The translations under genes and the position numbers were made by a program. This document shows positions 54,150 through 58,655 of a stretch of 64,000 nt of DNA, one piece after another. The DNA is from Eisenbergiella porci (lineage in GTDB: Bacteria > Bacillota > Clostridia > Lachnospirales > Lachnospiraceae), in contig NZ_VUMI01000005.1 in NCBI RefSeq assembly GCF_009696275.1, positions 62,001 to 126,000 on the forward strand, given 5' to 3'. The notes under the pieces were generated by a model. The model did not search any database. It had not been told where the DNA came from and worked only from the letters and a program-made list of their open reading frames with translations. Every line of letters starts with the position of its first letter. Positions within the stretch are counted from its first letter, which is position 1.

Positions 54150-54602
54150 TCAGAAATACTTTTTGCTGCCCCACAAATTCTTCTTCTTGAGATCCAGATA
54201 TTCATGATAGGCCTTCTCCAATATCTGCTTCTCATTGGCAAACTTGAGCAGATGATAAGCCTCATGATACTTATAGAATCCGGAGTCAACAAAATATTCC
54301 TCACGTTGTGGTTTACTGTAATAACTGTCGGCCATCATCAGATACCAGTGAACCTCCTTGTCCACCGTATCCTCCGGCACACTGAAGGTATACTCACTCT
54401 TCCCGATATACTTGATAATGGATGCCCTGGCACCGCTCTCCTCAAGAACCTCCCGGAGCGCCGTATCCTTATATTCTTCTCCTGCCTCTACCGTTCCCTT
54501 GGGCAGCACCCAGCCTTCATACTTGTTCTTGAAATTCTTATACAAAAGCAGAATCTTCCCACGGAAAATAACCACACCGCCACAGCTTGTTGCTTCTATC
54601 AT
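54150..54602 (-). CDS. Nudix hydrolase, Ap4A-hydrolase-like
   Basis: 150 residues from the ATG at 54602 (AGGAGG six nt upstream). Nudix box GTVEAGEEYKDTALREVLEESGA is complete. The short front and YKNFKNKYEGWVLPKG just before the box resemble bis(5'-nucleosyl)-tetraphosphatases. The C-terminal YHEAYHLLKFANEKQILEKAY is helical. The substrate is inferred. The first giant inverted repeat begins 144 nt upstream. Confidence 0.82.
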   Translation of the reverse strand: MIEATSCGGVVIFRGKILLLYKNFKNKYEGWVLPKGTVEAGEEYKDTALREVLEESGARASIIKYIGKSEYTFSVPEDTVDKEVHWYLMMADSYYSKPQREEYFVDSGFYKYHEAYHLLKFANEKQILEKAYHEYLDLKKKNLWGSKKYF

Positions 54603-54745
54603 TGCAATTCCTCCTGTTTGGTGTGAGCCGCGCCCCATATCTCAAAACACAGAACGCATATTCAATTGCATAAACTACATAAAGTATATCCCAAAACCCC
54701 CCGTAAGGCAAGTACAAAATTCTTTATTAGATGTGTAGGGAGGAC

Positions 54746-55155
54746 GTCTATACGAGTTACTGTTCCGGGGCTGTAGGGCGGGTTTTCTGGGCGGGAGGGG
54801 ATTGGGGGGCGCTGCCTGGCCCTGTTTCCGGGACCGTGGGGGGGAGGTGGGGTGTTTTGGGAACCATTGGAAAAAACGGGGTGTTTCTAATTGTTCCGAA
54901 ACAACAGAATTCTGTCAACGCGGCTGAAACTCCTCACACAGCGGCCTTTGGCCGGCTGCGTTCGTCAGACAAGCCGCTACGGGCGACAGAATTCTGTTGT
55001 TTCGGAGCAATAAGAAACATCACCGTTTTTTCCAATGGTTCCCAAAACACCCCACCTCCCCCCCACGGTCCCGGAAACAGGGCCAGGCAGCGCCCCCCAA
55101 TCCCCTCCCGCCCAGAAAACCCGCCCTCAGCCCCGAAACAGTAACTCGTATAGAC
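54746..55155. repeat. Giant inverted repeat P1 (171-bp arms, 68-bp loop)
   Basis: Left arm 54746-54916 and right arm 54985-55155 are complementary with about seven differences, clustered at the inner end. Pairing seems to go a little beyond, to about 54722 and 55172. The loop 54917-54984 holds its own hairpin CGGCC-TTT-GGCCG-like. The inner part (about 54865-55038) is shared, inverted, with P2; the outer arms, very G-rich on the left, are not. Confidence 0.95.
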
Positions 55156-55310
55156 TAGACTACACATAAGATAAAGTTAAAAGAAAAAACAAACAAGGGA
55201 AGGAAACGCTTTATTTAAAATATTCCCAAAATACTTAACTACATCCATCTCCCTTAATTAACTGAAAATCCTTCAATTTCGCTGTCCTTGTCCTTCATAC
55301 CGCCTGCTGA

Positions 55311-55644
55311 GGGGTGCCGCTGTCTGTTTTTGCTTCCGGGCCCGGCATACGCTCCGGGGCGGCTGTGGGACGTGGGGGGATTTTTCTGCTCCATTGGAAA
55401 AAACGGAGATGTTTCTTATTGCTTCAAAACTGCAGAACCCTGTCGCCCTTAGCGGCTTGTCTGACGAACGCAGCCGGCCAAAGGCCGCTGTGTGAGGAGT
55501 TCAGCCGCGTTGACAGGATTCTGCCGTTTTGGAGCAATTAGAAACACCCCGTTTTTGAGACTGGAGCAGAAAAATCCCCCCACGTCCCACAGCCGCCCCG
55601 GAGCGTATGCCGGGCCCGGAAGCAAAAACAGACAGCGGCACCCC
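55311..55644. repeat. Giant inverted repeat P2 (133-bp arms, 67-bp loop)
   Basis: Left arm 55311-55444, right arm 55512-55644. The outer 80 nt are perfectly complementary; the inner 50 nt are imperfect. The loop is the P1 loop in reverse orientation. P2 ends 10 nt from the pbpA stop, so the pbpA mRNA would end in this stem. Confidence 0.95.
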
Positions 55645-55654
55645 CCCACCCCCA

Positions 55655-57112
55655 TCAAAAACCGGCGTTGAAGTAGGCGTCGAAGATTCTTTTGGCTATG
55701 GGGACGGCGTAGTCGCTGCCGGATCCGATGCCTTCTATGATGACGGTAACGGCGATTTCCGGGTGGTCGGCGGGGGCGAAGCCGGTGAACCAAGCGTGGG
55801 AATCGGCTTTGTTCTGGTTGAATTCGGCGGAACCTGTTTTGCCTGCGGCTGTGTAAGTAAGGCCGGAGAGGCGGGAGGCGGTGCCCTCTTCCACCACGTC
55901 GGTCATCAGGCCGCGCAGTGCGGCGGCTTCTTCAGAGGTCATGAGGCGGCGGTACTGCTGTGCCTGGAATTGTTTGATGATTTTACCGTCCGCGCTTTCA
56001 ATGCGTTCCATTTCGTAGGGGCGCATCAGAAGTCCGTCGTTGGCTATGGCGGAGGTTATCATGCATAAATGCAGAGGGGTGATCTGGGTCTTGCCCTGGC
56101 CTATGACGGTCTGTATGAGATCCTCGTCACCGCTGTCGGCGGTTAGCTGGATGTGGCTTTTGGAGTAGGGAATGTCAATGGGAAGCTCCTGGTTAAAGAG
56201 GAGATCCTGCATGGTGGAAACAAAGCTTTGTTTATCCAGCGTCATGCCGATGTTGGCGAAGGAGGCATTGCAGGACTTGGCAAAGGAGCGTTCAAAGGAA
56301 ACCTGGCCGTGTTTGCTTCCGTGGAAGCAGCGGATGGTATTCTCTCCATGGGTATAGCTGCCGTTGCACTGGTAGGTGTAATTTGACCAGGTATTCGGAT
56401 TTTCACGGATGTATTCCAGTGAAGTCACGATTTTAAAGGTGGAGCCTGGCGGATATACGCCCTGGGAGGCTCTGTTCAGCAGGCTGGAATTTTCGGTGTC
56501 CGCTGTGACTTCGTCCCAGATTCCGGCAATTTCATTGGGATTAAAATCCGGTTTGGAGACCATGGCAAGTATTTTCCCGGTATCGGGTTCCATGACCACA
56601 ATTGCGCCCTCATATATGCCCATCGCTTTATAGGCAACCTCCTGAAGCCCAGTGTCCAGGGTAGTATAGAGGTTGTTTCCCGGATTCTTTTTGCCGGAGG
56701 CGGAGTTGCCGGCCTGCTGGGCTACAGTGGCCGAGGTGTTGATCAGGTAGTAGTTGGCCAGGCTTTCCAGTCCGGTTTTTCCTTTGTCGGAATAGCCTAC
56801 GATATGGGCAAACATGTTGTCATAGGGATAATTGCGGACTTCTTTTCCTGATTCATCCCTGATTGTCTGTGCAAGGATTTCTCCGTCCGCAGAGTAAATG
56901 GTGCCGCGGGTGTTTTTCGTTGCAAGGACAGCCTGCCGGCTGTTGTAGCTGTTATTGAACAGGGCTTCGGAATTGGAGGTGACATAGGTGCACAGATAGA
57001 TAATAAGGCCCGCAAAAAGGCAGCAGAAAAAAGCTGCTGTGCCGATCAGGTTTCTATTTGCCCTTCGGGTATCGTATATTTTTTCTTCCGTTCCAGGGCG
57101 CTTCCTCTTCAT
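55655..57112 (-). CDS. Penicillin-binding protein 2 (PbpA-like transpeptidase)
   Basis: 485 residues from the ATG at 57112 (KRKRPGTEEKIYDTRRANRN), which matches the family; the frame is open to 57244 inside ftsW. One membrane helix (LIGTAAFFCCLFAGLIIYLC), dimerisation region, then the transpeptidase: SxxK in PPGSTFKIV, SxN in AKSCNASFAN and KTG in AAGKTGSAEF. It crosslinks peptidoglycan together with the FtsW/RodA polymerase upstream. The start lies 59 nt inside ftsW; the box is weak, so coupling is likely. Confidence 0.92.
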   Translation of the reverse strand: MKRKRPGTEEKIYDTRRANRNLIGTAAFFCCLFAGLIIYLCTYVTSNSEALFNNSYNSRQAVLATKNTRGTIYSADGEILAQTIRDESGKEVRNYPYDNMFAHIVGYSDKGKTGLESLANYYLINTSATVAQQAGNSASGKKNPGNNLYTTLDTGLQEVAYKAMGIYEGAIVVMEPDTGKILAMVSKPDFNPNEIAGIWDEVTADTENSSLLNRASQGVYPPGSTFKIVTSLEYIRENPNTWSNYTYQCNGSYTHGENTIRCFHGSKHGQVSFERSFAKSCNASFANIGMTLDKQSFVSTMQDLLFNQELPIDIPYSKSHIQLTADSGDEDLIQTVIGQGKTQITPLHLCMITSAIANDGLLMRPYEMERIESADGKIIKQFQAQQYRRLMTSEEAAALRGLMTDVVEEGTASRLSGLTYTAAGKTGSAEFNQNKADSHAWFTGFAPADHPEIAVTVIIEGIGSGSDYAVPIAKRIFDAYFNAGF

Positions 57113-58655
57113 CGTCCCAGTAGATTTCTTTTTCCGGGCCGTTGCGGTAGTCTTCTTCAAAGTCGTCTTCTTCGTACTCATCTTCATTCCAGCCTTCTTC
57201 TTCATAATCCCCGTCTTCCATATATTCGTCATCCACTGCATCATTTTCCATATCGTTGTAATCCTGATAGTCTTCTTCTATATAGTCTTCCTCATACGGC
57301 TCTTCCCCGACGCCGCTCCCATCATACGCCTTTCTGCGTCTGCGGTTTTCTTTTTCCCATTCGTCCTGTTCCCTGAGCCAGATTCCCTGCATGATGGAAA
57401 AAAGGATCAGGGTGGTCATGACGCTGCTTCCTCCATAGCTGACCAGAGGAAGAGTCACGCCGGTCAGCGGGATGAATTTGGTGCCGCCCCCGATGGTGAG
57501 GAAAATCTGAAAAATATACATTACGCCGAAGCCCGAAGCAATCAGGCGGAAAAAGGGATCGGAGGAATAAAGGGCAATTTTTAGAATCATAAAAAAACAG
57601 GAAATACATATGAAAATCAGGCAGATGGAAAAAATGATTCCCAGTTCTTCCGTCACCGCGGCAAAAATAAAGTCGGTCTCCACATAGGGGATGTCCTTCG
57701 GCGTACCCTGGCCGATTCCGAGGCCGAACCAGCTTCCCCGGGACATGGCAAAGAGCGACTGGGTAATCTGGTAGCCCTGGTTGTCAATTACGCTCCAGGG
57801 ATCCTTCCAGGCCTGTACTCTGACCTGCACGTGCCTGAATATCAGGAAAGCCAGATAGGAAGCCACACCTCCGGCGCCGGCCCCTGCCAGCAGATATCGG
57901 TATTTTCCGGTGGCAAAGAAAACCAGGAATACATAGGCGGCGAAAAAAATCAGGGCGCTGCCCAGATCCCTGGAGGCCACCAGGATCAGAATGTGAGCCG
58001 CGGCAACCGCGCCGCTGAGGGCCACATTTTTAAAGGAGGAATCCTCCCAGAGGATGGCGGCCATGCAGAACAGGAACAGGATTTTCACAAATTCCGAGGG
58101 CTGGAAGGTGATTCCTCCCAGGGAAAAGGACAGCTTGGAGCCATGCGTCACCTGCCCTAATATGAGCACGGCGCCGATGGCCGTAATACCTGCCCCGGCA
58201 TAGGCCCAGGTCAGTTTTTTCCAGAAGCGGCATCTGCGGATAAACAGTGGGACCGCCAGGGCGACGGCCAGGGAAGCGGCCGAGATAAACAGCTGTTTTC
58301 CGGCTTTGTGCAGATCCAGTCGGGTCAATATCACAAAACCGGTCCCCAGCAGCAGACACATATGATTCACCAGCAGCCGGTTGATTCCCGGATAAATCAT
58401 GGAAAACATCATCATGGCGGTAAAAATGGCTATCTGGGACATGGCATAAAAGAACAGATAATCCACATCGCCTTTTTCCACGCATATGGTCAGAAATGCG
58501 GCAAACTGAATGACAAATATGAAGGCACTCTGCAGGTTGTCATATTTTTTCCGGCCTGTTTCCGTGCAGAATACCCGAAAAAAAGAAAGCACTGTATAAA
58601 GTATCATGAACAGAGTGATTATGTATTTGGAGTAAACAATGATGTATTGTTCCAT
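57054..58655 (-). CDS. FtsW/RodA/SpoVE-type glycosyltransferase
   Basis: 533 residues with ten or so helices. Family landmarks: FQPSEFVKILFLFCMA, RDLGSALIFFAAYV, GSWFGLGIGQG and PLVSYGGSSVMTTLI. It polymerises lipid II. The N-terminal ten residues are short before the first helix. An unusual tail of about 100 residues is strongly acidic (EEDYIEEDYQDYNDMENDA) and ends over the start of pbpA. Which of FtsW, RodA or SpoVE it is cannot be decided here. It starts 6 nt after the U32 gene. Confidence 0.92.
   Translation of the reverse strand: MEQYIIVYSKYIITLFMILYTVLSFFRVFCTETGRKKYDNLQSAFIFVIQFAAFLTICVEKGDVDYLFFYAMSQIAIFTAMMMFSMIYPGINRLLVNHMCLLLGTGFVILTRLDLHKAGKQLFISAASLAVALAVPLFIRRCRFWKKLTWAYAGAGITAIGAVLILGQVTHGSKLSFSLGGITFQPSEFVKILFLFCMAAILWEDSSFKNVALSGAVAAAHILILVASRDLGSALIFFAAYVFLVFFATGKYRYLLAGAGAGGVASYLAFLIFRHVQVRVQAWKDPWSVIDNQGYQITQSLFAMSRGSWFGLGIGQGTPKDIPYVETDFIFAAVTEELGIIFSICLIFICISCFFMILKIALYSSDPFFRLIASGFGVMYIFQIFLTIGGGTKFIPLTGVTLPLVSYGGSSVMTTLILFSIMQGIWLREQDEWEKENRRRRKAYDGSGVGEEPYEEDYIEEDYQDYNDMENDAVDDEYMEDGDYEEEGWNEDEYEEDDFEEDYRNGPEKEIYWDDEEEAPWNGRKNIRYPKGK

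What the first reader, a model, noticed from the sequence alone, without database searches (positions are those of the whole stretch)
54746..55644. Two adjacent giant palindromes share a core but have unrelated self-complementary arms
P1 (410 bp) and P2 (334 bp) each fold on themselves with 171- and 133-bp arms. Their inner parts, including the 67-68-bp loop, are the same sequence in opposite orientation. Their outer arms have nothing in common, yet each is complementary to its own partner, perfectly over 80 nt in P2. Within each core the two inner arms differ in the same way (one side GGTGTTTCTAATTG, the other GATGTTTCTTATTG), so the core is a fixed asymmetric unit with imperfect terminal repeats. 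The simplest view is a small non-coding element that sits in, or generates, an inverted duplication of its flank. I know of no named family with this form.
Basis: partly seen in the sequence, partly recalled or inferred. Interest (0 to 1): 0.85.

Follow-up and report, generated by a model that had tools for sequence, protein, structure and literature searches.

The report
Mobile giant hairpins with changeable arms
Two giant DNA palindromes in this gut bacterium are copies of a mobile, protein-free hairpin element, for which I found no name, whose centre is conserved while its long arms change from copy to copy and yet go on matching each other, which makes it a natural test of how DNA copying builds and keeps perfect hairpins.

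Summary
P1 and P2 are copies of a dispersed element: about 41 in this genome (Eisenbergiella, inferred), 44 in E. tayi, 19 and 8 in two other members of the genus, and 16, 3 and 2 in three other Lachnospiraceae genera. A core of about 155-230 nt keeps a strand-specific fold: unpaired AACTCCTC facing CGTCAGACA, a CTAA/TAAG A-A mismatch, and helices in which 46 of 48 pairs show double changes. In the two largest sets most copies have their own 54-156-nt arms, about 94% paired with each other, with at most weak similarity to other copies. At one site shared by two species, flanks and core are 74-82% identical, the arms show no similarity, and each pair is still 96-98% complementary. So arms change in place and stay matched. 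They are not local flank: no arm matched at the P1/P2 site of 12 relatives. In one genome the element has terminal inverted repeats and 8-bp target duplications. Best reading: a non-autonomous palindromic transposon with a conserved folded core, its arms kept matched by arm-to-arm copying (template switching, inferred). Transposase and function of the core are unknown. No Rfam family, phage or plasmid matched.

The parts
54732..54745 (+). G-rich 5' edge of P1 (TGTGTAGGGAGGAC); many copies have a G-rich edge here
54746..55155 (+). P1, complete hairpin element (410 bp)
54746..54860 (+). P1 left outer arm (115 nt); no close relative among the other arms, though the copy L010 aligns at 73% over query 58-354, partly into the inner arm
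54861..55043 (+). P1 conserved core
   Evidence: 158.9 bits, E 4.5e-41; the model includes this copy
54928..54935 (+). unpaired motif AACTCCTC, conserved in nearly all of the 48 aligned cores
54963..54971 (+). unpaired motif CGTCAGACA facing AACTCCTC
55044..55155 (+). P1 right outer arm (112 nt), complementary to 54746-54860
55156..55310 (.). AT-rich spacer between the 3' ends of P1 and P2; includes the purine-rich 3' side of P2 (minus strand, about 55264-55310)
55311..55644 (-). P2, complete hairpin element (334 bp)
55386..55567 (-). P2 conserved core
   Evidence: 153.5 bits; the model includes this copy
55494..55501 (-). AACTCCTC of P2
55458..55466 (-). CGTCAGACA of P2
55568..55644 (-). P2 left outer arm (5' side on the minus strand)
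55311..55385 (-). P2 right outer arm
55645..55654 (-). G-rich 5' edge of P2, directly after the stop codon of the penicillin-binding-protein gene
55655..57244 (-). flanking gene: penicillin-binding protein transpeptidase (PF00905), matched in the relatives
54150..54638 (-). flanking gene: NUDIX domain protein (PF00293), matched in the relatives

Best explanation
P1 and P2 are copies of a non-autonomous, palindromic transposable element (MITE-like, with REP-like placement). The whole hairpin, about 250-490 bp in the copies measured, is the element. Shown: it is multicopy and dispersed; in one genome (G002) it carries terminal inverted repeats GTAACARTTCAGNCACC and several copies are flanked by 8-bp duplications, as a DDE-type transposase supplied in trans would leave. 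Shown: the core is conserved as a strand-specific fold. Shown for one site, and supported by a second: the arms of what looks like the same insertion in two species have no similarity and yet each is complementary to its partner. Inferred: during replication the hairpin lets the polymerase switch from one arm to the other, so that a change in one arm is copied into the other (quasipalindrome correction, template switching); this keeps arms matched without selection on each base and erases their ancestry. Inferred: the mismatches and loops of the core survive this because they are selected, most simply as the recognition structure of the folded strand (single-stranded DNA or RNA) for a host or transposon protein.
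For: Family and dispersal: about 31 places in the own genome by DNA similarity, 8 more by covariance model R1, 2 more by pattern; R1 was positive in 4 of 41 genomes, all of the own genus; R2 also found G191 (3), G327 (16), G388 (2) and G011 (8). Fold: 41 of 58 pairs (29 sequences) and 46 of 48 pairs (48 sequences of 4 genomes) have at least one double change. Arms: G000, 34 copies with arms of 50 nt or more, 3053 Watson-Crick, 43 G-T, 30 A-C, 25 other, 103 gap columns; G001, 40 copies, 3632 / 49 / 20 / 24 / 117 (arm ends were set where complementarity stops, so the share paired is high partly by construction). Left-versus-right score median 165 (G000) and 168 (G001); cross-copy median 20 and 18; 3 of 561 and 0 of 780 cross pairs reach the lowest own score, the 3 being L021/L028/L032. 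In-place turnover: L041 versus L107, left flank 78%, right flank 82%, core 74% (z 29, 15, 18), arms z -0.9 and -0.3, own-arm complementarity 0.96 and 0.98 (alignment); L087 versus L115, left flank z 29, core z 25, arms z 0.0 and -0.1. Paired changes: five comparisons of close G000 copies (two of cores only, three among L021, L028 and L032 with arms) gave 51 pairs changed on both sides with pairing kept, 1 both changed and broken, 30 changed on one side, 4 one-side deletions; unpaired bases changed 36 of 274. Ends: of 6 G002 copies with usable ends (of 11 fetched) 4 have flanking repeats matching in 7 or 8 of 8, against 0 of 30 mismatched pairings; of 4 short 74-83-bp relatives without the core, 3 have matching duplications (two 8 of 8, one 7 of 8). 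Site in relatives: intergenic piece read in 10, no match to P1/P2 arms, core or spacer in 12 loci. Mechanism precedent: PMC8794818 (abstract, section 8 and passages).
Against: Ends and target duplications are shown only for G002, and not for every copy there: 2 of 6 fail, a further long copy has 6 of 8 (L246). Over 85 copies of four genomes exact 9-bp direct repeats near the ends are 3 against 0.27 expected, one of them offset by 9 nt, and matches of 8 or more are 7 against 3.6, so for G000 and G001 transposition is inferred. No transposase is linked to it. Cross-copy arms are not wholly unrelated: 82 of 561 (G000) and 66 of 780 (G001) pairs exceed the 99th percentile of shuffled arms, so weak common descent or shared composition remains. 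Arm hypervariability is not universal: G002 copies share inner arms, G327 copies have short, similar arms. Template switching alone does not explain why arms diverge more than flanks, nor the A-poor left arm of G000 and G001; in G002 the left arm is instead T-poor (A 17%, T 9%). In G002 one-sided changes (31) outnumber double ones (22). Same-site copies could be independent insertions into one hot spot, although by eye both junctions of L041/L107 agree within a few bases; for L087/L115 the right flank is not informative (z 1.9).
Confidence: 0.6

Rival explanations
1. A functional structured RNA family: the long dsRNA stem and core are selected as RNA, and the arms co-vary through ordinary compensatory evolution.
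For: Strand-specific core with double changes in 46 of 48 pairs; G-T mismatches exceed A-C in the arms, 43 v 30 and 49 v 20; when the left gene is co-oriented the hairpin starts within 32 nt of its stop codon in 16 of 19 (G001) and 7 of 15 (G000) cases, against 3 of 15 and 3 of 14 for a stop codon facing the other end, so it would lie in a 3' UTR.
Against: No sigma-70-type promoter facing the element: mean z 0.19 over 41 copies whose left gene points away, against 1.28 for the other direction; 0.06 over 32 co-oriented ones. Double changes exceed one-sided ones between close G000 copies (51 v 30; not so in G002), and arms lose similarity while flanks keep it. Excess of G-T over A-C would also hold for single-stranded DNA. 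No Rfam family.
Confidence: 0.2
2. The element makes or needs an inverted duplication of its flank at each insertion.
For: Arms differ between most copies of G000 and G001; two G002 copies (L098, L103) have different outer arms around nearly identical inner arms.
Against: Arm composition is unlike flank; no arm sequence matched at the syntenic locus of 12 relatives; L021, L028 and L032 share arms that differ by paired substitutions; G002 copies share inner arms.
Confidence: 0.08
3. A SINE-like element copied through RNA by a reverse transcriptase in trans, with slippage at the 3' tail.
For: In G000 and G001 the right-hand side is C-poor and purine-rich for about 80 nt; tandem arrays of score 50 or more in 14 of 116 right flanks against 2 of 116 left flanks; 13/14-mer units of similar sequence in three genera; with a pattern drawn from those tails, all matches of at most 1 mismatch in 10 genomes lie in three element tails.
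Against: Inverted-repeat ends with 8-bp duplications in G002 are not what target-primed reverse transcription gives; in G327 the left flank is as purine-rich as the right; most copies have no array; no reverse transcriptase was looked for.
Confidence: 0.07
4. REP/BIME-type element moved by a RAYT (Y1 transposase).
For: Extragenic, palindromic, often close to stop codons, and four convergent pairs in G000.
Against: Y1_Tnp gave no match in element-bearing G002, G011, G191 and G327 and matches in G007, G009, G010 and G012, where no element was found; length about ten times a REP.
Confidence: 0.04
5. Assembly artefact.
For: Palindromes are hard to assemble; the own genome is in 149 contigs.
Against: Found in seven separate assemblies with a conserved core, and at matching junctions in two of them.
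Confidence: 0.01

Closest known systems
MITEs (for example BrickBuilt of Porphyromonas gingivalis, PMC4596501, abstract and outline seen)
   Same: Short, non-coding, intergenic, multicopy; in G002 terminal inverted repeats and target duplications; some copies carry a minisatellite
   Different: Nearly the whole element is one hairpin; conserved strand-specific core; arms of most G000 and G001 copies share little with other copies
IS66 family ends (PMC11946415, passages seen: inverted repeat starting GTAAGCG, 8-bp direct repeats)
   Same: G002 ends begin GTAA and several copies have 8-bp duplications
   Different: No transposase identified; ends differ after GTAA; these ends were searched only in G002 and G011, and the G000/G001 ends read here differ
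REP / BIME repeats (PMC12306157 and PMC3733652, passages seen; abstract starts)
   Same: Extragenic palindromes, some close to stop codons, sometimes in inverted pairs
   Different: 250-490 bp instead of 20-40 bp; GTAG or CGTC tags not tested; no RAYT association; long variable arms
Template-switch-made hairpins (PMC8794818: abstract, section 8, passages seen)
   Same: Perfect stems and simultaneous compensatory changes
   Different: There studied in rRNA and microRNA stems; here arms of about 90-100 nt in a mobile bacterial element
Perfect palindromes in Nematomorpha mitochondrial genes (PMC6649704, passages seen)
   Same: Long perfect inverted repeats; template switching or conversion proposed for concerted arms
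   Different: Within coding sequence of mitochondrial genes; no conserved mobile core described in the passages seen

Membership tests
MITE (non-autonomous TIR transposon) | Multicopy, non-coding, dispersed | tested here: met
MITE (non-autonomous TIR transposon) | Terminal inverted repeats conserved between copies | tested here: met
   G002: 169 hits to the end motif at up to 3 mismatches against 39 for the reversed control, ends on copies. G000/G001: only a subset shares GGATAAACGCATC or variants
MITE (non-autonomous TIR transposon) | Fixed-length target-site duplication | tested here: met
   G002 only: 4 of 6 long copies and 3 of 4 short ones; G000/G001 inconclusive
MITE (non-autonomous TIR transposon) | An autonomous relative or transposase with the same ends | not tested
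   none seen next to copies; an IS with these ends was not sought systematically and the listing was cut
IS66-derived MITE | Ends starting GTAA(GCG) and 8-bp duplication | tested here: inconclusive
   GTAA and 8 bp met in G002 (compare), GCG not; no IS66 transposase searched
REP/RAYT | Genome holds a Y1 RAYT transposase, usually flanked by the repeat | tested here: not met
   no match in 4 of 7 element-bearing genomes
Known Rfam RNA family | Score over the family's gathering cut-off | tested here: not met
   only sub-threshold matches, over the element all to microRNA precursors
Independent sRNA gene | Own promoter upstream | tested here: not met
   (sigma-70 weights recalled; an internal or other promoter is not excluded)
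Integron attC-like folded recombination site | RYYYAAC / GTTRRRY ends and an integron integrase | not tested
   recalled resemblance of TTTCTAAC only; most copies in A1 have GTAAGAAA, not GTTAGAAA

The most novel reading that the evidence does not exclude
A new class of mobile hairpin in which only the fold of the core is inherited by selection, while the long arms are rewritten as a matched pair: each arm is repeatedly resynthesised from its partner in a folded single strand (at the replication fork or in the transposition intermediate), so the element has no stable arm sequence and an insertion keeps its place but not its letters.
Probability: 0.35. Interest if true: 0.85.

Novelty: new variant of a known kind. 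Interest (0 to 1): 0.66.

Why it matters
Compensatory double changes are usually read as proof of a selected RNA. Here arms of about 80-100 nt lose detectable similarity at a shared insertion site while staying 96-98% complementary, which points to a copying mechanism. With about 110 natural copies in four related genomes (some truncated) the family allows a direct test of how often template switching, rather than selection, makes covariation. It also warns that covariation scores in such elements may overstate RNA function; the more telling signal is the set of mismatches that is not erased.

Tried and rejected
RAYT/Y1 transposase as mobiliser: rejected for lack of co-occurrence. A linked protein gene: clustering of 579 ORFs around 118 loci gave what look like ordinary host genes and frames that read through the element itself (no annotation search of them was made). 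Half-cores split by an ORF (an autonomous version): the two pattern scans gave no split pair that I recognised. Known RNA family: no match over cut-off. Phage or plasmid origin: P1 core, no match at E 0.01 in either collection. Own promoter: not supported. Retroposition: kept as a weak rival because of the tails. General target duplications in G000/G001: weak. Literature: none of the listings of eight searches of open-licence papers showed this family (not all were aimed at it, and papers outside the library were not searched). Possible relics at the P1/P2 site: in G012 a 15-bit model match (E 0.027), in G011 a GC-rich insert with a core-like stretch seen by eye that the model did not report; not proven.

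Full report
The finding checks out. P1 (54746-55155, plus strand) and P2 (55311-55644, minus strand) fold into single giant hairpins, -386.9 and -284.9 kcal/mol, z -39 and -33, with 0 of 100 shuffles as stable in each case. P1 has a 105-nt stretch at 100% complementarity and P2 an 80/80 paired outer arm. The cores are 87% identical in opposite orientation and the arms are not significantly alike (z 1.1 and 1.9).

They are two members of a family. A DNA search of the own genome gave 67 matches at about 31 places; a covariance model built from 29 cores (R1) added 8, and a pattern added 2, about 41 in all, including truncated copies (L031 and L035 lack the right arm; C63:38982 is cut). The tables use 39 of these; the last two were fetched later and only read. 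R1 was positive in 4 of 41 genomes, all of the own genus: G000, G001 (44 places by my count of the table; 40 fetched), G002 (19; 11 fetched) and G011. G001 is E. tayi DSM 26961, inferred from equal contig lengths; the genus name for G000 is inferred from that. A wider model R2 (48 cores of four genomes) was positive in 5 of 397 genomes drawn from the family, with only 6 candidates scored in each, and in 1 of 391 drawn from the class, the own one. A deep scan of 11 genomes gave G011 8, G327 16, G191 3 and G388 2, and none in seven other members of the genus; two more, G005 and G009, had no match to R1. The P1 core has no match in the phage or plasmid collections.

The core is a fold, not only a sequence. 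RNAalifold finds 58 pairs in 29 sequences, 41 with double changes, and 48 pairs in 48 sequences, 46 with double changes. The strand matters: two pairs are G-T in 23 and 21 of the 29 sequences and would be A-C on the other strand. Unpaired AACTCCTC facing CGTCAGACA, and the A-A mismatch in CTAA/TAAG, recur in nearly all copies of the own genus and, with variations, in G191, G327 and in part G388. Rfam has nothing over its cut-offs.

The arms behave differently. In G000 and G001 the left arm matches its own right arm with a median score of 165 and 168, while arms of different copies score 20 and 18; 3 of 561 and 0 of 780 cross pairs reach the lowest own score. The arms are not wholly unrelated, though: 82 of 561 and 66 of 780 cross pairs exceed the 99th percentile of shuffled arms. 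Arm columns are 93.8% and 94.5% Watson-Crick paired, gaps included, in the 34 G000 and 40 G001 copies with arms of at least 50 nt. This is partly by construction, since arms end where complementarity stops. Five of the 39 G000 copies fell below 50 nt and were left out; two of them, L040 and L043, have perfect arms of 62 and 77 nt beyond a bulge. Left arms hold 8% and 10% A in G000 and G001, but in G002 they are T-poor instead (A 17%, T 9%). Flanks hold 24-38% A. No P1/P2 arm, spacer or core sequence matched at the syntenic locus of 12 relatives (the G006 locus is cut by a contig end); the intergenic piece read in 10 of them is 102-340 bp. So the arms are not inverted copies of the local flank. 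Free change of the arms is not universal: G002 copies share their inner arms, and G327 copies have short, similar arms.

The strongest result is a shared insertion. Copy L041 of G000 and copy L107 of G001 sit at the same place and in the same orientation between homologous sequences. Left flank 78%, right flank 82% and core 74% identity, z 29, 15 and 18; arms z -0.9 and -0.3; yet the arms of each copy are 96% and 98% complementary to their partners. A second site, L087 against L115, gives left flank z 29, core z 25 and arms z 0.0 and -0.1, with an uninformative right flank (z 1.9), because G000 has a convergent pair there and G001 one copy. Independent insertion at the same spot cannot be fully excluded, but by eye both junctions agree within a few bases at the first site.

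Close copies show how arms change. Five comparisons of G000 copies (P1/P2 and L087/L087b, cores only; L021, L028 and L032 with 80 nt of arm) gave 51 pairs changed on both sides with pairing kept, 1 both changed and broken, 15 one-sided wobbles, 15 one-sided breaks and 4 one-sided deletions; unpaired positions changed 36 of 274. Seven G002 comparisons against one copy gave 22, 1, 13, 18 and 5, so there one-sided changes are in the majority; unpaired 34 of 308. Copies recur in these comparisons, so the counts are not independent events. A one-base gap stands in both arms of L098 and of L102. Template switching during replication can create perfect stems and make simultaneous compensatory changes (PMC8794818: abstract, section 8 and passages), so it is the simplest cause. 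It also means that covariation here is weaker proof of RNA function than usual; the mismatches that survive are the better sign of selection.

The element is mobile at least in G002. Its ends, GTAACARTTCAGNCACC, occur 169 times at up to 3 mismatches against 39 for the reversed control. Of 6 copies with usable ends among 11 fetched, 4 have 8-bp flanking repeats matching in 7 or 8 positions, and 0 of 30 mismatched pairings do; another long copy, L246, has 6 of 8. Of four short 74-83-bp relatives without the core three have such repeats. GTAA ends with 8-bp duplications recall IS66 (PMC11946415, passages), but no transposase was identified. In G000 and G001 target duplications are not convincing: over 85 copies of four genomes 3 exact 9-mers against 0.27 expected, and 7 against 3.6 at 8 or more of 9. 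L021, L028 and L032 share the end GGATAAACGCATC or a variant of it, and L028 has an exact 9-bp repeat.

Context. When the gene on the left runs in the same direction, the hairpin begins within 32 nt of its stop codon in 16 of 19 G001 and 7 of 15 G000 cases, against 3 of 15 and 3 of 14 for stop codons facing the other end. These are simple ORF calls: P1 was given a spurious gene there and P2 the wrong one; P2 in fact starts about 10 nt after the penicillin-binding-protein stop. REP sequences are also known close to stop codons (PMC12306157, passages). No promoter of the sigma-70 type faces the element. Its sense strand has a positive GC skew in 25 of 38, 29 of 40, 9 of 9 and 13 of 16 copies of G000, G001, G002 and G327, but in 3 of 7 of G011 and 2 of 3 of G191; gene direction may confound this. 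In G000 and G001 the 3' side is C-poor and purine-rich for about 80 nt; in G327 both sides are. Tandem arrays of score 50 or more lie in 14 of 116 right and 2 of 116 left flanks, and a 13/14-mer of similar sequence recurs in three genera.

Verdict: an unnamed variant, as far as these searches show, of the MITE/REP kind, with an unusual property: the place and the fold are inherited while the arm letters are not. The transposase, the role of the core and the reason for the arm composition remain open.

Noticed in passing
window 54746-55644; G000 C79:46341/46852, C106:58392/58933, C73:31858/32129-32312: Four convergent pairs of the element, 3' ends facing each other, core starts 511-541 bp apart in three of them; two pairs are close relatives in the core (P1/P2, L087/L087b), L036/L086 is not.
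   Followed up: partly
L089, L164 and L153, right flanks: Tandem 13/14-mers of similar purine-rich sequence just 3' of the element in three genera.
   Followed up: partly
G002: L236, L242, L250, L252: 74-83-bp miniature elements with the same ends as the G002 hairpins but without the core, perhaps deletion derivatives.
   Followed up: partly
L257, L258, L261: Solo ends GGATAAACGCATC with a short stretch of arm and no hairpin behind them, possible half-deleted copies.
   Followed up: no
L191 (G012) 2464-2593 and L200 (G011), intergenic region next to the NUDIX gene: Possible relics of an older copy at the very site of P1/P2 in two relatives (E 0.027 in G012; by eye in G011).
   Followed up: partly
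G002: L098 and L103: Nearly identical inner arms but different outer self-complementary arms, as if the element sat in another palindrome.
   Followed up: no
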